From positions 372,001 through 436,000 of the forward strand of contig WIUZ02000018.1 of NCBI GenBank assembly GCA_015956445.1: a DNA stretch of 64,000 nucleotides. Direction: 5' to 3'. Source of the DNA: Thelephora terrestris. Lineage: Eukaryota > Basidiomycota > Agaricomycetes > Thelephorales > Thelephoraceae. The notes beneath the pieces were generated by a model. The model saw only the letters and a list, made by a program, of their open reading frames with translations. It had not been told where the DNA came from and searched no databases. How positions within the stretch are numbered: position 1 is the first letter of the stretch; the number at the start of each line of letters is the position of its first letter. This document shows positions 8,229-45,467 of this stretch, in pieces. The position numbers were made by a program, and so were the translations under genes.

Positions 8229-9668
8229 GCCGCTTAGAATCCTTCGATAGTAAATGAAGAACGAGTGGGGGGAACGAGGTTCACTAGCGAGTGAGAGGTG
8301 AGGCAGAGAGACAAGGAGATGGTACAAGGGGAGAAGGAAGGGGAGGAGAGCAGTGAGAGGGACCTTGAAGTGGTACGGGGATAGAAGGAGGCGAATACGA
8401 AGATTGCCTCCCTAGATATACTCGACTCACCTTTACCCGAATCAATTCCATCACGGTATTTCCACACCATGTGCGAAAAGACCCTAGTTGCGTTGCGGCC
8501 ATCAAGAACTTGGAAGACCTGGTATGATGTCGAGATCCGCCTCGCAACCGCACCACGACTAGAGGGGTTCATTGATTCTTCTGAAAGCGGCCAAGTCTCG
8601 GTGAATTTAGACTGGACGTCCGTTGAACAGAACTCACCCTGCCTCTGCCTTTGTTTTTCCTGGAACGCGACTGAACATCATGTTCTCTCTTTTGGTAAGG
8701 CGGGTGGCTGTGGGTCGATCACTTCTGACTCTTTGAGTTGCGAGTTTGTGACGGAAATGGAAAGTGTAAACGTCTTGCCCGATGGGTGAAAAAGGTTCGT
8801 TCGATCGTGGCTCGACCGCAAGATAAAGGCAGGAAACATATCCCCTTTGTCTGGCTCTGTGGCGTAGTCAATATCTCTGGCCACTCACCATCTCCCCCCA
8901 CACCCAATCTAGAAGCGCGTTTTCTGGCACATAACTCCCACAGAACCCCACATCAGAGTAACGTGCCTTGTTCCCTTTCTCATAAAAGGCTTTGTTACCG
9001 ATCAGGCGAACAATGTCCAGCCACCGAGATAGGCGCGGTCGACGTCAACTGCGCGCATTTCAAACGGCCAGAGTCTCTTTTTTATTGAATTCAAAAGTGC
9101 ACTAAATCCATCGTTTTCGTAGTTTCATACCCTGGCGACACCGACGGAACTGCCCATTGGAGGACGTGATGTAGATGCTGATACTTAACCACAAACATCT
9201 TCATCCTTTGATGATCATTGACGTTGGCGCCGACGAGCGGCACGGCCAACGACAGACCCCCAGGGTGCCCACAGACCTCGCGCGTAGCCTCGAAGTATAG
9301 AATCATCCAATCCCGTCTAATTTCCTTTCTCTTAGATTCTCCGTTCTGTTCAGTGCCTTGCGGTTTGACTACAAGAGTCTTTCTTGTGAGACATACACCG
9401 GAGTATCAAGACCCGGTGATATGAGCCGTTGCCCGCGTTGCGACCCTGGGGAGCGTGGAGTGGGCTGTAGTGCTTGTGGTACCTGCGTCCCAGAGTCCCA
9501 GGACAAGCTACAATGAAATCTGAATGGACAAAAGTTAGTCAGCCTCTATCTATCTCATGATACCGTCGATAAAATAGCGTTACCCAGCAGAGAGCTGCTG
9601 AAGGAAGGCACCCGAATCTCCTTGCTAGATCCCGCACGTCGTGGAGGCACTTTCAAGCTCACTCGCAA
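8229..9668. other. no supported gene; 5' flank of DUF6534 gene
   Basis: Open frames exist on both strands but lack motifs and splice logic. The first few hundred bases should include the promoter of the minus-strand DUF6534 gene. No clear TATA element was picked out. Confidence 0.4.
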
Positions 9669-36272: not shown

Positions 36273-38041
36273 CTATTCCAAGTCGCTCCACCTGGTATTG
36301 CAAGTCCCACAGACCCGTTGTCGATCCCCAGCGACCTCGTAACGGTCCCAACAAAAGTGGTCCCTGAGGTACCCCTCGTACCCCGAACACACGTCCCAAC
36401 CGATATGCAGACAATACGCCATCGAGAGTTTCCCCAACGGGAATCCGTTTTGGTACCTCTGCTCTAGGAGATGACCGAGGTGGATGGCCATACCGGCGTG
36501 TGAGGTCGATGCGAAATTGATGTCCTTTAGACGAAAGGTGTGAAGGCGCGGGAGGGGTCCACCTCCTTCCTCGGTAGATGGTGGAGAGGCAAGGACTTGA
36601 ACGATATCATTGATGGCGGAGTCGGTGACACGAAATTCCTGGACGGCGCTAACCATCTGAAACAGGCGCCGGAAATCCTGCCTGAACAATCCGGAGTACC
36701 TCCTGATGCTCAGACCCGTTATGTATGCCGTAGGCAGCCGCTTGGCCACCTCTTCCGGCAGAGTGGGAGCGATATCCCAGAACCCCATGTCGAGGGACGA
36801 AATCCTGAGCATCAGGAAATCTTCCGGGTCACCCCGCTCACCGGGTCGGGAAACGTTTATGCTCAGGCCCACCAGAGCATATACAATGTGAATGGCAAGG
36901 TCACTCGGTTGACACGTGAGGAAGAGGTTGGGTAGAAATGGCGTGAGAGCCGCGGCGACATCCGTTACGATCCCGTCGAGGAGGAGATCGGTCTTGACTT
37001 GCTTGAGCTTATTCGAAAATCTGAGAAGGTTGAGCAGCTGAGCGTGGCCAGCGGCATTCCCGTGGACCACTAAACGGCGAAGGTGAGGGAGTAAGATGGA
37101 AATTGGGAAGGAATCCTGGGAAGTCGAAGAAATCTCAAGCGAGAGGTTGATTTCCTCGAGGGCGCTGTTTCTAGCCAACAAGGAGGCGAGTTCTAGGACA
37201 GTCGGGCGTGTGGACCTATCGCGAGCGTGGATGAAGAGGTGGGTCAATTCCGAGGTCCTGCGGATGAGAGATTCCCATCCCACATCGCAACCACGAAGGC
37301 GGAGAAACCGAAGTTCGGGGAAAGAGCGGGAATCGAGAAAGTTAGTCACGTCCGGCAAATCCTCGGGCCGTTCGGCGTTCCACGGCCCCTCGACCATTAG
37401 CACGAGAGATTGAATTTGGGAGTGAGACGAGGCCGGTTGTGGTGTGGACATGAGGGAGAGAATCTTTGCAAGTGTTTTGGGAGAGGTGTTAAGGTGAAGA
37501 TGGCGGATCCTTTCCTGGACATTGCAATCTTGGAGTACGCCACTGGCATCCCTGATCTCTCGGTCTGAGTTTAAGTCGACGAGGTTGAGGTATAGAGGAA
37601 CGGCGCCCGAGTAGCGATGAAATGCTACACATTCACGGAGGGATGTTCCCCAGAATGCCCACAGAGAAGGAGTTGAAGTTGCGACATCAAACCAATAACG
37701 GCACACGAGAAGAAAGTTGAATGTGTTCCTTGAGATCCTGCCAGTGGAACTCACTCCAGAGACGACGTTCCACCAAAAGATATGACCAAGGGTCTCGGGA
37801 GGGAGGTACACGGAAACGTTGAGGAGGGAGTTTCTGAGCCGCTTCAGGCGAGTTGCCTGCTTTCCGTCGTGCTGGATTTGTGCCTCGAGATTTTGGATTG
37901 CGTGTGCGTTTACCTCGCGTGAGCTGTTAGCGGGTAATTAGGTGGTGCCCCGAGCGAATGAGAATGAGTCACGACTCACAGGACCCGTTGCGAATCGAAC
38001 TTGGGGAAATGAGGAGGCCCGGAACGTACGGAAATAACCAT
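36273..38041 (-). CDS. F-box protein with leucine-rich repeat-like body
   Basis: A tiny first exon 38030-38041 (MVIS) is joined through a 116-bp intron to one long exon 36273-37913, giving 550 residues. A basic coiled N-terminus (LEAQIQHDGKQATRLKRLRN) leads to the F-box (LPPETLGHIFWWNVV ... FNFLLVCRYWFDVATSTPSL, about 41-90). This is the typical Agaricomycete form, followed by irregular leucine-rich repeats such as FPELRFLRLRGCDVGW and LLPHLRRLVVHGN. F-box proteins recruit substrates to SCF ubiquitin ligases. The C-terminus has CGTCNTRW, a possible metal knuckle. Without the mini-exon the long frame would begin at the internal Met at 37811, inside the F-box, so the two-exon model is preferred. 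Confidence 0.85.
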
Positions 38042-39547
38042 GTTTGCTTGAGCGCGAAGTCGCAAGGGGGTGGGGTGCAGCGGCGGGGTGGGAGTGAGAT
38101 CTGAAGATGGTGTGACGTGGCAAGGCACGAGTGAATGTAGGCGTATGGGTAGAAGGTACGAGGCGATTCTCTCTGGAAGTGGGGGTTGGTCAGAGACTCG
38201 AGGTGGCCCGGTGGCAGAAGATCAGTCAAAGCTGACCGGGCTTAGACTGGAATCAGCGTCATGGAGGCTTTTTGAATTATTTACCGTCATTGATGATCCG
38301 GCGTGACGGAGCAACCGAAACGACAGTCGGTCACACCCAAAGGCCGGTTTGTTTGAGCGGATTGAATCGGGTATCTGTTACGCAGCGAGACTGTGTGGAG
38401 GATGGGCCGGAAGTGGGTACTGTCAGAAGCCGGGATAGCGAACCTACGCGCTCTTCATCTTGAAAGGCTTGTGGGCAATCTCTTCCGCATCCCTCTCTCT
38501 GTCTGCCACTGAGTCACTGATTAAACGGCGACCTAGCAACTACTGAAGTCGGCGCAATGGAGGTCAGGCCTGTCAGGCTAAGAGCCATGATGTCGATGAA
38601 CCGCGTTGACAAGTCGACCACGGTTTCCGTTGTTTTCCCCTCAGGGCGCGATGGCAGGTGGTGAGATGAGACGAGTTCCGGTATTGAACACGGAGGGGTG
38701 GAAAGATGGGGAGCGACAAGATGCGCGACGTTCAACGGTGAGCTTTAGTTCGATAAGGTCTCGCACAACATCAAGGTGCTCCCTCCTCCGATCCGAGGAC
38801 CCCTTTTGGCTACTTTCACGCGGTGCTCCTCGGCTACCACGACCTCAAACAGGATCACTCACGAAGATCGGTGGTTGGGCACTGCTCAAGTATTCTATCA
38901 AAGATGCGCCATCAGTCTGTCACTGATGATCCACAAGGTCACCATCGCTGTCGGCATAGGTCGTTTCAGAAATCGTTACATGAAAACTTCGCAGGGTGTA
39001 GTACTTCGAGCCACGAGTTCGTCACAATGAACCCCACGTTACCTTTCAAAGGGGTCTTGCTCAGGAATTTGGATCTCTCTGAAACTCAGGCGTTTGTAAA
39101 GTTTTGCAGGCTTCGAAAAAAATGTGGTCGGGCATCAAACGTATCAGATTTTCACCTCCTGACCTCACAGGTCCTATGGCGATGAGCGGTGGCTACCTCC
39201 AGCTGTCTATGCGTTTGGTTTGCGAACAACGAACTCGCGATCGCAAAGTGTCGCACCATCGCCTATCTTCCGGCACGGAGGGATCGCTCACACATCAAGG
39301 TCAGGGAGCTGGTGTTGTTCGTCCACCACATCCTGCTCGGACACGATGACCGAGTCCCAGGGGCTTGCTTGGCATCTAGCCAATGCCCGAGACCGAGCGA
39401 GCTGATCGCAGATGGATGGGACTTCTGTTTCCCAACGTGCGCCATGATTTGTGGTACAGGATTGAATTCACCGCCCTCCCATCATCAGCGGCAAGTTGAA
39501 ACTCGACTGCACATCAATCACCCCCACTCAGCGGTTGCCGAGGGGCA
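38042..39547. other. no supported gene; upstream region of repeat precursor 1
   Basis: Open frames on the plus strand lack motifs. From about 39400 the sequence is duplicated at about 42097 as part of the tandem unit carrying the two repeat precursors. Confidence 0.45.
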
Positions 39548-39554
39548 TATAAAA
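39548..39554 (+). promoter_or_regulatory. TATA box of repeat precursor 1
   Basis: tataaaa in ggggcatataaaagattgg, 127 bp before the start codon. The same element precedes precursor 2. A clear TATA box suits strong, regulated expression. Confidence 0.75.
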
Positions 39555-39680
39555 GATTGGATGGGCCCTCCCTGAATTCCTCAGCCGCTGTGCAGCTCCC
39601 CCCAGTTCCTTCTCCTACCCCTCCAACCCCAGGCCTGGTGCCGTTGTTATCTGTTCTTTTTTACGACAATTTCTATCATC

Positions 39681-40788
39681 ATGTTCTCCAAAGTCGCTCT
39701 CTCCACCCTCGCCGTCGGTGCTATCTCTGCCAACGCTTTGGCTGTCCCCGTCGCCCGTTCTCCCGCTCCTCAGCCTGAATGTGAGTTTTCCTGGATTATT
39801 CTCTGCCCCTCCCCGTCACGATCTGACCTTGGTTTCTTCTATAGCTTGGTCTGAATGGGGCACGAACATCGGGAACTACTATTCCAACAAGTACGGATCC
39901 CCTTCCGACGTTCCCGGACTCCCTCAGTTCAAGCGTGAGCCTGAGACCTGGGGAGAATGGGGTAGCAATATCGGAAACTACTACGCCAACAAGTATGGGT
40001 CCCCATCTGACGTCCCCGGACTCCCTCAATTCAAACGCGAGCCCTCTCCTGAACCGGAGAGCTGGGAGGAGTGGGGTACGAACATCGGAAACTACTACGC
40101 CAACAAGTATTCCACCCCCGATTCCGTCCCTGGGCTCCCTCAGTACAAGCGTTCTCCTTCGCCCGAGACTTGGGGGCAGTGGGGTAGCAACATCGGGAAC
40201 TACTACGCCAACAAGTACGGATCCCCCGATCAGGTCTCTGGTCTCCCTCGCCCTTGGTTGAACAACAAGCGCGAGCCTTCAACTCCCTCGACCCAGGTGA
40301 AAAAACCCGCCCCGACACAGGTGAAGGTACCCAGCGCCGCCAACGACAATTCCTACGCCCTTGCGGCCAAGCGCGAACCGGAGAGCTGGGAGGAGTGGGG
40401 TACCAATATCGGAAACTACTACGCCAACCAGTACGGGTCTCCGTCCGACGTTCCTGGCCTCCCTCAATTCAAGCGCGAGCCTTCTCCCCCGACCCAAGTG
40501 AAAAAACCCACCCCGACACAGGTGAAAGTACCCAGCGCCGCCAACGACGAGTCCTACGCCCTTGCGGCCAAGCGCGAACCCGAGACCTGGGAGGAGTGGG
40601 GTACCAACGTCGGAAACTACTACGCCAACCAGTACGGGTCTCCGTCCGATGTTCCTGGACTCCCTCAATACAAGCGTGAGCCCTCTCCCGAGCCTGAGAC
40701 CTGGGAGGAGTGGGGTACCAACATTGGGAACTACTACTCCAACAAGTACTCTACCCCGGATTCCGTCCCTGGACTTCCCCACTACTAG
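39681..40788 (+). CDS. secreted Kex2-type repeat precursor 1
   Basis: Exons 39681-39780 and 39845-40788 give 347 residues. A signal peptide (MFSKVALSTLAVGAISANALA, cut at about 21) precedes VPVAR. The rest is eight KR sites separating nine segments. Seven segments carry the core W-x-x-W-G-[TS]-N-[IV]-G-N-Y-Y-[AS]-N-[KQ]-Y, most then running to VPGLPQ[FY]KR. The fourth ends RPWLNNKR and the last ends VPGLPHY at the stop codon. Two other segments are TQVKKPxPTQVKVPSAAND types ending ALAAKR. Every segment after KR begins with [ES]P dipeptides, stopping before E[ST]W. This predicts Kex2 cleavage, X-Pro dipeptidase trimming and release of several near-identical 30-residue peptides. Function unknown: hormone-like, surface-active or RiPP precursor. 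No DUF3328-type tailoring enzyme was seen. Confidence 0.9.
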
Positions 40789-42305
40789 CTCGTAGTTGAT
40801 GCCTTTGTTTTCCCCTCTTGAGCAGCTTTTTTTCTACGAGAACTTAATGATTCGTTACGACCCCTTTTTCATGTATTGTCCGCTTCATAATAGATAACGA
40901 CGGTTGGAACTGGTCCTAATTTGCGCCCTTCTGGGGCTCGTGTGAATTGTTTTACTTCAAGAAGAACTGGAGAGAGGCGCAACGAGATTTGAGCCACGGA
41001 ACTGATCGAGTCGGATTTGGGTTTGCCACCACACCTTCACTGCCGCGTCTCGCTGTGCTCTTTCTCGCGCTGCCTGCTTTGAGGCCATCGTATTTCTTCT
41101 CCAAGACAGAATTCACTGCGCCCAACGGAATGAACCGGAGTATGCCCTCTACACGTGTGCTTAGAGACGAAGTTGATGTTTTCCCGGCGGTGATGGAATC
41201 CTCTGTTTTCCCTTGATGTTAGGGTGAAACAAGTGGTGCGCCGTTCATTTTTACGCATTTTTCAGTGTCTTGTGCTCACAGATCTCTTCATTTCCCGCAG
41301 GCGGGCCTACGATTCACTGACGACGATCCGAAACGCGTCTGAGAGCAACCGCTTGATCACTCTGACAGCGCACCGGTTCACTCAAGATCACACGTCGGTC
41401 GGGGTCGGCAAACAGAACGTTACGCCGGGCGCGTCATGCGAGGGAGTCGCTCGTGGAAGGCGCATCATTCCTTGCATACACTAACTGGCGGGTCGCTAGT
41501 GTATGCCATCTCAACAGCGGCCTGACGAGGAAGAAATATGCCTGGCTTGTTACGACGCAGATGTCCAACCGTTTTATCTGGGGTACGGCGACGGCTGTTG
41601 TTATGGGTGCCTTCGCCGCTTTCTTCTCCACCAATCAAGTTCCATTGCCGTTCTGTACGGGCGATGGGAGAAGCGTGGTATTCCGGTCCTTTCGGTGATA
41701 AAGTATCGCCAGGTTCAAATCCTCCCTTCCTCCGACACCTTGGTTTCCATTCAGACGAGTTTCGAGACTACGTCACTCCTCAGTAACCAGGATCTACTCT
41801 ATCAAACTTGACCCTGAGGATGGCATTCTCGGGAGATGGTGATGATTGATGTCCGTTCGCATATCCTGATGTCCGTTCGCATATCCTAGCGGCAGTGACC
41901 GTGAGTTCGGCCTCGGAGAGTGAAAGTTACATCTCGGTTTCCAAGCACGGGGAAGGCTGTTGGAGGGTTGGACCGATGATCACGATGATATCGAGAAGTC
42001 AGTTGGCTCGCAGCTGCTTGCATTACGATTACCGCCTGGGCGCGCCCCTAGGTCGTCCCCTACTGAGGGATTCGCTATTTCCCTTTCTTTCCGAATTGAT
42101 CGCAGATGGATGGGGGCTTCTGATTCCCGAAGTTCTTGGCATTGATGCGGTGTGTGGCACAGGGTTGAGTTCACCGCCCCCATCATCATCAGTGGTAAGT
42201 CGAAACTCGACGATACCATCACTCAGTCCAAGATGATCGCCGCTGCCGTGAAATACCGCCAGACTGAGAAAAACATCAACCCCCACTCAGCGGTTGCCGA
42301 GGGCA
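40789..42305. other. spacer between the tandem precursors
   Basis: 3' flank of precursor 1 and upstream region of precursor 2. Its open frames (for example 41453-41811 plus) are not conserved in the duplicate, so I do not call a gene. A 20-bp direct repeat (tgatgtccgttcgcatatcc, twice) lies at about 41848-41887. Confidence 0.5.
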
Positions 42306-42312
42306 TATAAAA
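42306..42312 (+). promoter_or_regulatory. TATA box of repeat precursor 2
   Basis: tataaaa, 127 bp before the start codon, in the same context as for precursor 1. Confidence 0.75.
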
Positions 42313-42438
42313 GATTGGATGGGCCCTCCCTGAATTCCTCAGCCGCTGTGCAGCTCCCCCCAGTTCCTTCTCCTACCCCTCCAACCCCAGGCCTGGTGCC
42401 GTTGTTATCTGTTCTTTTTTACGACAATTTCTATCATC

Positions 42439-43423
42439 ATGTTCTCCAAAGTCGCTCTCTCCACCCTCGCCGTCGGTGCCATCTCCGCCAACGCTTTGGC
42501 TGTCCCCGTCGCCCGTTCTCCCGCTCCTCAGCCTGAATGTGAGTTTTCCTGGATTATTCTCTGCCCCTCCCCGTCACGATCTGACCTTGGTTTCTTCTAT
42601 AGCTTGGTCTGAATGGGGCACGAACATCGGGAACTACTATGCCAACAAGTACGGATCCCCTTCCGACGTTCCCGGACTCCCTCAGTTCAAGCGTGAGCCT
42701 GAGACCTGGGGAGAATGGGGTAGCAATATCGGAAACTACTACGCCAACAAGTATGGGTCCCCATCTGACGTCCCCGGACTCCCTCAATTCAAACGCGAGC
42801 CCTCTCCTGAACCGGAGAGCTGGGAGGAGTGGGGTACGAACATCGGAAACTACTACGCCAACAAGTATTCCACCCCCGATTCCGTCCCTGGGCTTCCTCA
42901 GTACAAGCGTTCTCCTTCGCCCGAGACTTGGGGGCAGTGGGGTAGCAACATCGGGAACTACTACGCCAACAAGTACGGATCTCCCGATCAGGTCTCTGGT
43001 CTCCCTCGCCCTTGGTTGAACAACAAGCGCGAGCCTTCTCCCCCGACCCAGGTGAAAAAACCCGCCCCGACACAGGTGAAAGTGCCCAGCGCCGCCAACG
43101 ACGATTCCTTCGGCCTTGCCCTTGCGGCCAAGCGCGAACCTGAGACTTGGGGGCAATGGGGCGAAGCCATTGGCAACCACTACGCCGCTCCTTGGAAGAA
43201 CCCGAAGCGTGAACCCGAGAGCTGGGAGGAGTGGGGTACCAACATTGGAAACTACTACGCCAACCAGTATGGGTCTCCGTCAGACGTCCCTGGACTCCCT
43301 CAATTCAAGCGCGAGCCCTCTCCCGAGCCTGAGACCTGGGAGGAGTGGGGTACCAACATTGGGAACTACTACTCCAACAAGTACTCTACCCCGGATTCCG
43401 TCCCTGGACTTCCCCACTACTGA
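42439..43423 (+). CDS. secreted Kex2-type repeat precursor 2
   Basis: Exons 42439-42538 and 42603-43423 give 306 residues. The signal peptide is identical to precursor 1, as are the first four repeats apart from one residue (Ala for Ser in the first repeat). Seven KR sites separate eight segments: seven W-x-x-W segments and one TQVKKP-type segment (ending GLALAAKR). The fifth W segment is divergent and short, WGQWGEAIGNHYAAPWKNP, and absent from precursor 1. The last repeat again ends VPGLPHY at the stop. After the stop, copy 2 carries about 65 bases absent from copy 1, whose loss gives copy 1 a TAG in place of TGA. The pair is therefore a recent duplication whose repeats are being gained, lost and exchanged. 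Confidence 0.9.
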
Positions 43424-45467
43424 TTCCGAGTACGTGCTCCTTCCGTTACCTTCCTCCGCTCGCGATCGAGTGCTGACCGCTGTTCCTTTTTTCTAGCTCG
43501 TAGTTGGTGCCTTCGTTTTCACCTCCTGAGCGGCTTTTTTTCTACGAGAACTTAATGATTCGTTACGACTCCCTTTTATGTATTGTCCGCGTCATAATAG
43601 ATAACGACGGTTGGAACTGGTCCTAATTTGAGCCCTTCTGGGGGCTCGTGTGAATCGCTTGCTTTTGGGAACCCACGCGATTCGAGCCAGCAATTTGGTA
43701 GTACTCCCAGCGCCGATCGGACTTTCGTTGCTCCCTCTCGACTTCCACACTTTCGCTTCGCGCTGCCTCACTTTGCTCATTTTCGTCCTGCCTGCTTATA
43801 CCTCGTCACATCTCGCGTTTGGGAGATTTCACCACATCCAACGCCATGAACTGATGTATCTCATCTGCCTACACGTGTGCTTAGGAACCAAGTTGTGGTA
43901 GGTCACCCGCTTCTATTTGCTTCCCAGTGTCTCAAGTTTGCAGACCCTTCCGCTCCGTCACTGAACTCACGACTCACTGACGAACCGAATAGCGTCGAGT
44001 CACCGCTTAGTCCCTCCAATAGTGGACTCCTTCATTCAAGACCACACGATTGTCATGCTGGACGCATTATCTCACCCGCTGCAAGATCGCCGTTCATGGG
44101 AGAGCATCGGTGTGTCATTGTTTGCATACACTCACTGATGGGGTCGTTACTGTTTGCTATTCAAAATTTCGACAACAGCTCAAGAACGAAGAAGCCTCCC
44201 TGGCTTGTTACGAGGCAATCCTGCGTCGTGCCATGTATTATCGCCGGTTTCCTTGCCGTCGTATACGGGCGGTGGGCGTACCTTTGTCTCCATCCCCACT
44301 ACATCACTCGTTGGAAAGATTCTACTCTTTCGAGCCTAAGCCTGGAGGTGCCATTTTCGGGCTTCGTTTCGTTCGCGTTTCCCGGCGGGAGGGCCACTGC
44401 GGGTTCAGCCACGAAAAACGAAAAACACCTAGTTTCCCGAAGCACATGAAAGGCTTTTGGAGAGTGGAGCAATGATTACGATGATCCCGAGGACTCTGCT
44501 TACATCTGCGCACACCACTACCCGAATTCCATCTAGGTCGTCCCCCGCCGGGGGGACTTTCTATTTCCCTTTCGTTCGTCCTGCTGAGCTGAGGGGTGCG
44601 CTATACAGCTCTACTAAGGATGAAAACCATGTGGTTTTTCCGATTGGTTTCTGTGCTGTCATTCGTCTGTCATCTCATCGTGATCACCGGCCGTCCCACC
44701 AAGCTGTTCCTGTGTGGAGCGTGTCTAGACGAAAACCTTTCCCCATGAACAACTCCAGTAACCAACGCAAGCTGATGGAACGAGCGAAGGCGCGATAGCT
44801 GGGTACGAGGGCTGGCCAGAACCTGGTGAAAACATGCGTGCACTTAGGTCCTAGCCTTCGAGTACGGGAACTGTCGTATGATCGTTCTTGCTTAGGGAAC
44901 GAGTTTGGGATGTGCATGTGCAGGGGGTGAAGTAAGCTGCTTGCGTGATTCCCTCGCCTCCCTTCTTGTCAACCCAATTGCCGTTCTATCCTCCTTTCAC
45001 TGAATGCGAGTTCAGTTTCATCTCACGAGTTACCGAGTGCATCGAACTGATTTCGAGAGAAGTATAAACGAGCACTATGTTGTACCTCCCGAGGGTACAA
45101 GTATACGGAACCGTTCGAGAGTTATTACAGACATACTTAATGGGATAAAAGAAAAGAAGATCACAACCTCAGTGCGCAAGAAGGGGAGGCAAACACCAAG
45201 ACGCGTCGAGAAATCTAGACACAATCCATATCAAACGAACACGACAAGATGCGCAGGTTTCTCGTGGGAACAATAATAATAATAAAACAAGGCGCGAACA
45301 GAAGTAAACGGGGTGGATCGGCTTTAACAGGGAAAAATAAGAATACTACAAGTTCACAGCGAGGCTTGTAGCATCGGTTTCTATAGTAGACCGAGGTCAG
45401 AACCAGGGTAGAAGTCGCTCAAGAGGATTGTTGAGCTTACAAGATGTGGTGGTGGTGTGGAATGAGC
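43424..45467. other. no supported gene; 3' flank of precursor 2
   Basis: Up to about 44300 it aligns with the 3' flank of precursor 1. Open frames are not conserved between the copies. The last part includes the 3' UTR of the pheromone gene, with a spliceable intron at 45381-45440. Confidence 0.5.
45381..45440 (-). other. 3' UTR intron of pheromone precursor 1
   Basis: Donor gtaagc just after the stop codon region (ccacatctt|gtaagc) and acceptor ctatag|AAACCGATG. The same arrangement follows precursor 2 (47063-47120). Confidence 0.6.

What the first reader, a model, noticed from the sequence alone, without database searches (positions are those of the whole stretch)
39681..43423. Tandem pair of secreted KR-bounded repeat precursors
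Two adjacent genes encode a signal peptide followed by eight and seven KR sites that cut out near-identical aromatic peptides. The repeat core (W-x-x-W-G ... N-Y-Y-x-N-x-Y ... P-G-L-P) matches no peptide family I know. Promoter, 5' UTR and signal peptide are almost unchanged between copies while repeat number and type differ. That pattern fits a precursor under selection for peptide output. Such kexin-processed precursors are known in fungi as a class (repellents, cyclic peptides, alpha pheromones), but this core seems new.
Basis: partly seen in the sequence, partly recalled or inferred. Interest (0 to 1): 0.9.

Follow-up and report, generated by a model that had tools for sequence, protein, structure and literature searches.

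The report
Paired precursor genes for secreted peptides
Two neighbouring fungal genes each encode a secreted-looking protein that seems built to be cut into several copies of a 30-residue peptide, using the layout of yeast mating-factor precursors; the kind is known, while the peptide itself matched nothing I could search.

Summary
Gene A (39681-40788, 347 aa, 8 KR) and gene B (42439-43423, 306 aa, 7 KR) each have one 64-nt intron, a signal-like N-terminus and tandem KR-bounded units. The last unit of each gene ends at ..LPHY-stop, where KR removal would end the others. Kex2, Kex1 and a Ste13-like peptidase should release about 30-residue peptides; 11 of 14 cores are exactly 30. Cores differ strongly at synonymous sites but little in protein (pN/pS 0.25), so the peptide is constrained. 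Near-identity of promoter, UTR and signal peptide is not evidence of selection: the intron is 64/64 identical while homologous flanks are 61-75% (BLAST pieces), so recent gene conversion fits better. AlphaFold models each core as a helix plus Pro-rich tail, with low-confidence linkers. STE13-type KEX2-processed repeat proteins are published in Basidiomycota, so this is a new member of a known kind. Processing and function are inferred, not shown.

The parts
39546..39555 (+). TATA-box-like CATATAAAAG, 135 nt before the ATG of gene A (the same at 42304, 135 nt before gene B)
39681..39780 (+). gene A exon 1: signal-peptide-like N-terminus MFSKVALSTLAVGAISANALA, then VPVAR and SPAPQP
   Evidence: signal peptide judged by eye, no predictor run
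39781..39844 (+). gene A intron, 64 nt, GTGAGT...CTGAC...TATAG; splits the Ser codon of the first ESW
   Evidence: identical 64 of 64 to the gene B intron; splicing not shown by transcripts
39845..40788 (+). gene A exon 2: seven W-units (A1-A7), two linker-type units, 8 KR sites; ends ..GLPHY-TAG
40381..40470 (+). a canonical core (A5), ESWEEWGTNIGNYYANQYGSPSDVPGLPQF
42439..42538 (+). gene B exon 1; its first 33 residues are the same as those of gene A
42539..42602 (+). gene B intron, 64 nt
42603..43423 (+). gene B exon 2: seven W-units (B1-B7; B5 shortened), one linker-type unit, 7 KR sites; ends ..GLPHY-TGA
43430..43496 (+). intron-like stretch just after the stop of gene B (GTACGT...CTGAC...TTTTTTCTAG, 67 nt), lacking in gene A; possible 3' UTR intron
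   Evidence: splicing not shown
39511..40425 (+). gene A part of the homogenised tract, 95.9% identical to 42273-43186
42273..43186 (+). gene B part of the homogenised tract

Best explanation
Two tandem genes of a fungus, most likely an Agaricomycete (judgement), encode KEX2-processed repeat proteins with alpha-factor-type layout. Proposed route: the signal peptide sends the precursor into the secretory pathway; a kexin cuts after KR (and after the single R of VPVAR); a Kex1-like carboxypeptidase trims KR; a Ste13-like dipeptidyl aminopeptidase removes the EP, SPSP, EPSPEP or SPAPQP spacers two residues at a time and stops at E[ST]W, where the second residue is no longer Pro or Ala. The main product is a set of about 30-residue peptides E[ST]W-x-E-WG-[ST]-N-[IV]-GNYY-[AS]-N-[KQ]-Y-..-P-..-VPGLP-[QH]-[FY]. 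They act outside the cell, most likely as a signal within the fungus or towards its neighbours. Shown by sequence: open frames and sites, dipeptide spacers, matching C-end of the last unit, protein-level constraint. Inferred: splicing, every cleavage, secretion, the fold and the function. The confidence given is for the processing route; for a signalling role I would say about 0.5.
For: KR sites and dipeptides beyond 20,000 shuffles. X-Pro spacers of 2, 4 or 6 residues before E[ST]W in 14 of 14 W-units; all 15 KR sites are followed by EP or SP. Last unit in both genes ends at the residue (Y) where the canonical others would end after KR removal. pN/pS 0.25 among canonical cores within each gene, with synonymous differences near 0.5 per site. 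AlphaFold2 on the exon 2 protein of A: a helix in each of the 7 cores; mean pLDDT of 10-residue blocks mostly 53-73 over cores (one 43) against 27-36 over the two linker-type units. STE13-signature KEPs are reported in Basidiomycota (PMC6339444, sections 9 and 15 read) and peptides from such precursors were detected in Pleurotus fruiting bodies (PMC9769878, section 8 read).
Against: No transcript, peptide or secretion data. No whole genome is held, so Kex2, Kex1, Ste13 and receptor genes could not be looked for. Signal peptide not tested with a predictor. A 30-residue product is long for an alpha-pheromone (recalled: usually under about 15). Three of 14 W-units and the three linker-type units do not give the canonical peptide. 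The units share ancestry, so sites and spacers are not independent events. The precursor model is weak overall (mean pLDDT 53.7, no residue at 90 or more). Knock-outs of six C. cinerea KEPs showed no apparent phenotype (PMC9769878, discussion read), so a signalling role is not shown even for published relatives in kind.
Confidence: 0.8

Rival explanations
1. Repellent-like: the peptides are cut out by Kex2 but serve as structural surface peptides of hyphae (as Rep1 of Ustilago maydis), not as signals.
For: Similar precursor layout; many near-identical copies of an aromatic peptide of mostly 30 residues; helix positions W3, W6, I10, Y13, Y14, Y18 lie towards one side (mean resultant length 0.70, reached by 1% of 8008 position sets; positions picked after seeing the sequence).
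Against: Rep1 lacks the STE13 signature (PMC6339444, section 15 read). Cores are hydrophilic on average (GRAVY -0.90 to -1.22) and modelled as helices, not strands. Homology to Rep1 was not tested.
Confidence: 0.15
2. Defence or effector peptides: the released peptides act on bacteria, competing fungi, animals or a plant partner.
For: The authors of PMC9769878 favour interaction with the biotic environment for the KEP peptides they studied (discussion read). Repeat units vary somewhat between and within copies.
Against: No cysteine, acidic (pI 4.05-4.40 for canonical cores), modest amphipathicity (Eisenberg moment 0.31-0.33, equalled by 2.6-8.4% of shuffles): unlike common cationic antimicrobial peptides (recalled). 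Cores are conserved rather than diversifying.
Confidence: 0.25
3. Dikaritin-type RiPP: tyrosines of the core are cross-linked by UstYa (DUF3328) proteins into a cyclic product.
For: Kex2-repeat precursor with Tyr-rich core.
Against: No DUF3328 hit among 128 ORFs of 110 aa or more across the window; five single HxxHC matches but no open frame with two. Only 103 of 1680 Basidiomycota KEPs lie near DUF3328 genes (PMC7329392, section 7 read). The STE13 signature is absent from toxic cyclic tetrapeptide and epichloecyclin precursors (PMC6339444, section 15 read).
Confidence: 0.04
4. An unprocessed secreted repeat protein; KR sites and dipeptides are incidental to a repeat structure.
For: Repeats are near-identical, and duplicated units copy their KR sites and spacers with them.
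Against: Spacers vary in length only in steps of two residues; last unit ends at the mature C-end; linkers modelled with very low confidence, as disordered stretches are; no significant Pfam match.
Confidence: 0.06

Closest known systems
STE13-signature KEPs of Basidiomycota (Le Marquer 2019, PMC6339444; Vogt 2022, PMC9769878)
   Same: Signal peptide, repeats between Kex2 sites, X-Pro/X-Ala dipeptides after the Kex2 site.
   Different: Pleurotus peptides detected in PMC9769878 from such precursors are short (SGVAADW, MSGVAADW, LSGVAADW); here the core is about 30 residues with two Trp and a Tyr-rich middle. No sequence relation was shown or could be tested.
Ascomycete alpha-pheromone (alpha-factor) precursors
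   Same: Layout and the implied Kex2/Kex1/Ste13 route.
   Different: No MF_alpha Pfam match listed; core not alike and longer (lengths recalled); basidiomycete mating pheromones are a-type and prenylated (PMC9769878, passage read).
Repellent Rep1 of Ustilago maydis
   Same: Secreted, Kex2-cut repeats of roughly this length (length recalled).
   Different: Rep1 has no STE13 signature (PMC6339444, section 15).
Ustiloxin/phomopsin-type (dikaritin) precursors
   Same: Signal peptide and Kex2-cut Tyr-containing repeats.
   Different: No DUF3328/UstYa gene found in the window; cores here are far longer (core lengths of those recalled).

Membership tests
KEX2-processed repeat proteins (KEPs) | several near-identical repeats bounded by Kex2 sites | tested here: met
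   8 and 7 KR; 14 W-units; 0 of 20,000 shuffles reach the KR count
KEX2-processed repeat proteins (KEPs) | N-terminal signal peptide | tested here: inconclusive
   hydrophobic stretch with A-x-A sites read by eye; no predictor available
KEX2-processed repeat proteins (KEPs) | peptides actually released | not testable with these tools
   needs peptidomics
alpha-pheromone-type (STE13-signature) KEPs | X-Pro/X-Ala dipeptides directly after the Kex2 site | tested here: met
   14 of 14 W-units, lengths 2, 4 or 6, all X-Pro
ascomycete alpha-factor family (MF_alpha) | Pfam MF_alpha / MF_alpha_N match | tested here: not met
   not among the matches listed at E up to 10 for both precursors and one core (HMMER's filters drop most matches above about 0.1)
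dikaritin (ustiloxin-type) RiPP | neighbouring UstYa/DUF3328 gene | tested here: not met
   absent from 128 ORFs of 110 aa or more in this window and no open frame with two HxxHC; shorter exons were not scanned with Pfam
repellents (Rep1) | sequence homology to Rep1 and hyphal-surface location | not tested
   Rep1 sequence not fetched; location needs an experiment

The most novel reading that the evidence does not exclude
The genes make a basidiomycete peptide signal of a new kind: about 30 residues that fold into a small autonomous unit (aromatic-faced helix with a Pro-rich tail laid back on it) rather than a short linear pheromone, produced through the alpha-factor processing route in a lineage whose mating pheromones are of the other, prenylated type.
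Probability: 0.15. Interest if true: 0.65.

Novelty: new member of a known kind. Interest (0 to 1): 0.33.

Why it matters
Basidiomycetes carry precursors laid out like alpha-factor although they do not use alpha-type mating peptides (PMC6339444, sections 9 and 15), and their function is open. This pair gives a clear case with constrained cores, exact predicted ends and masses, and a built-in comparison of two copies, so release and activity can be tested directly.

Tried and rejected
Relatives: a pattern scan of viral contigs gave 163 stretches, none a relative. The genome collection gave 47 stretches and one match, L001 in Mucilaginibacter, which lies in a GH116 N-terminal domain. I reject it as chance: the stretch was preselected by an 8-residue pattern, its E-value is relative to the candidates only, and the Pfam scan of one core listed no family, GH116N included, at E up to 10 (filters drop most weak matches). 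By their descriptions neither collection holds fungi, so the lack of relatives says nothing about other fungi.

PDB sequences: three matches at E up to 10, best VP4 at 0.55, taken as chance; Foldseek on the core model: no match at E up to 10, as may be expected for 30 residues. A weak Abhydrolase_1 hit to gene B (E 0.0018, 18.4 bits, below the cut-off 25.8, 21 residues) is rejected as a repeat artefact; the other listed matches (DUF1007, VP4_2) have E 0.22-0.32. A search of paper texts for five core strings found one paper with one of them, unrelated by title and abstract (listing only); only main texts are covered. Further paper searches gave no paper, by its listing, that names this core. 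tRNA and Rfam scans of the window: none. An ORF with 3 KR at 8729-9085 is not repetitive.

Full report
Observation. Gene A reads ATG 39681, exon 1 39681-39780, intron 39781-39844, exon 2 39845-40788 (347 aa, 8 KR). Gene B reads 42439-42538, intron 42539-42602, 42603-43423 (306 aa, 7 KR). Both introns are 64 nt with GTGAGT donor, CTGAC branch-like site and TATAG acceptor (by eye; no transcript seen). A TATA-like CATATAAAAG stands 135 nt before each ATG. Cutting after KR gives 9 segments from A and 8 from B. By core motif there are 14 W-units, 7 per gene: 11 canonical cores of exactly 30 residues, A4 and B4 of 34, and B5 of 21. A has two and B one further unit of another type rich in TQVKKP. Residue shuffles never reached the observed KR counts (0 of 20,000 for each gene).

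Between each cleavage site and the core lies a spacer of X-Pro dipeptides: EP, SPSP, EPSPEP, or after the single R near the signal peptide SPAPQP. Its length is 2, 4 or 6 in 14 of 14 W-units and it stops at E[ST]W each time. All 15 KR sites are followed by EP or SP. Steps of two residues are what a dipeptidyl aminopeptidase needs, and X-Pro/X-Ala after the Kex2 site is what PMC6339444 (sections 9, 10 and 15 read) and PMC9769878 (sections 7, 8, 10 and part 1 of section 4 read) call the STE13 signature or motif. The last unit of each gene ends ..GLPHY-stop, the place at which KR trimming would end the other canonical units (..GLPQF or ..GLPQY). The units share ancestry, so these are not independent events, but the parity of the spacers holds across three lengths.

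Selection. Among canonical cores of one gene, synonymous differences are about 0.50 (A) and 0.52 (B) per site and nonsynonymous ones 0.12 and 0.13: ratio 0.25 in both, bootstrap over codons 0.13-0.39 (A, 6 cores) and 0.12-0.41 (B, 5 cores). A4, B4 and B5 were left out of this count because their lengths differ. The core is thus old and constrained as protein. The three linker-type units show 6 synonymous and 2 nonsynonymous differences over the shared 19 codons, summed over three pairs, so they are constrained or young too. Pairs are not independent, and exchange between units would affect both classes.

The two copies. I do not agree. The 160 bases before the ATG align with 159 identities and no mismatch, the intron with 64 of 64, and the first 176 codons differ by 4 synonymous changes (about 130 sites) and 1 nonsynonymous change. 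Beyond this the flanks are still homologous and collinear but far more diverged: 75% at 39398-39520 against 42092-42225, 61% at 41259-41559 against 43921-44217, 67% at 41874-42091 against 44370-44577; single 100-column windows of the global alignment range from 38% to 84% there. Inside, windows run 97-100% over 39530-40329 and 92-100% over 40524-40949, with the difference in unit number between them. An old duplication of a unit of about 2.5-2.8 kb whose genic part was recently homogenised, most simply by gene conversion, explains this; selection on the peptide would not keep an intron identical. Unit number still differs, so repeat gain or loss followed or escaped it.

Fold. AlphaFold2 on core A5 with the 14 units as alignment gives mean pLDDT 88 and one helix of four or more residues, 3-17, then a Pro-rich tail (pTM 0.40, low as expected for so short a chain). 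In the 313-residue exon 2 protein of A, with two sequences, the mean pLDDT is only 53.7 and no residue reaches 90, but a helix is placed in each of the 7 cores, and blocks over the two linker-type units fall to 27-36 against mostly 53-73 over cores. The helix positions W3, W6, I10, Y13, Y14, Y18 are clustered (0.70, 1% of position sets, picked after the fact); the hydrophobic moment is only mildly unusual (2.6-8.4% of 5000 shuffles, over 11 cores). No control on a shuffled core was possible.

Surroundings. Of 139 stop-to-stop ORFs of 110 aa or more, 11 overlap the two genes and 128 were scanned with Pfam at E up to 0.01 (counts). Hits: an F-box-like protein at 36276-37937 (below its cut-off), fasciclin, alpha/beta hydrolase, short-chain dehydrogenase, DUF4246, a weak aldehyde dehydrogenase and a weak THF_DHG_CYH_C overlapping the dehydrogenase. 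No DUF3328, and no open frame with two HxxHC motifs. ORFs under 110 aa were not scanned. The F-box protein with its long tail and the short introns suit an Agaricomycete; that is judgement, not a test. Outside the two genes no tblastn match to the cores, linker or signal peptide was better than E 0.27.

Known kind or not. KEPs are common: 7878 in 1345 of 1461 strains, 5.30 per strain in Basidiomycota; of the 6120 without DUF3328 neighbours, 767 lie near another KEP gene (PMC7329392, abstract and sections 6 and 7 read). Near-identical duplicated KEPs are described there for Peniophora, without saying that they are in tandem. STE13-type KEPs in Basidiomycota are in PMC6339444, and peptides from such precursors were detected in Pleurotus (PMC9769878, section 8). 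So the class is known. The core was not found in Pfam, PDB sequences or main texts of the paper library. The KEP catalogues themselves are in supplements that I could not open, and Umemura's most widespread type (49 genera, nearly all listed ones basidiomycete) is described as Tyr-rich without its sequence in the text, so this core may already be listed there without a function.

Verdict. A real, well-formed pair of alpha-factor-like KEPs with a long, possibly folded core; a new member of a known kind. Processing is strongly implied, function is open.

Noticed in passing
43430-43496: Intron-like stretch of 67 nt just after the stop codon of gene B and missing from gene A; the A copy may have lost it by a deletion whose TAG stop is made from the end of this stretch.
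   Followed up: partly
39398-42091 and 42092-44577: Old tandem duplication of about 2.5-2.8 kb, flanks 61-75% identical in BLAST pieces, with the genic part at 97-100% over 39530-40329 and 92-100% over 40524-40949.
   Followed up: yes
36276-37937, strand -: Single open frame of 554 residues with an F-box-like start (Pfam E 0.0036, below cut-off), like the large F-box families of mushrooms (recalled).
   Followed up: partly
L001:3001-3102: A GH116 N-terminal domain of Mucilaginibacter holds a stretch 49% like the core (IGNYYSNQY...LPRLPQ); judged to be chance.
   Followed up: partly
41847-41887: 20-base tandem duplication (TGATGTCCGTTCGCATATCC, two copies, 100% matches) between the genes.
   Followed up: no
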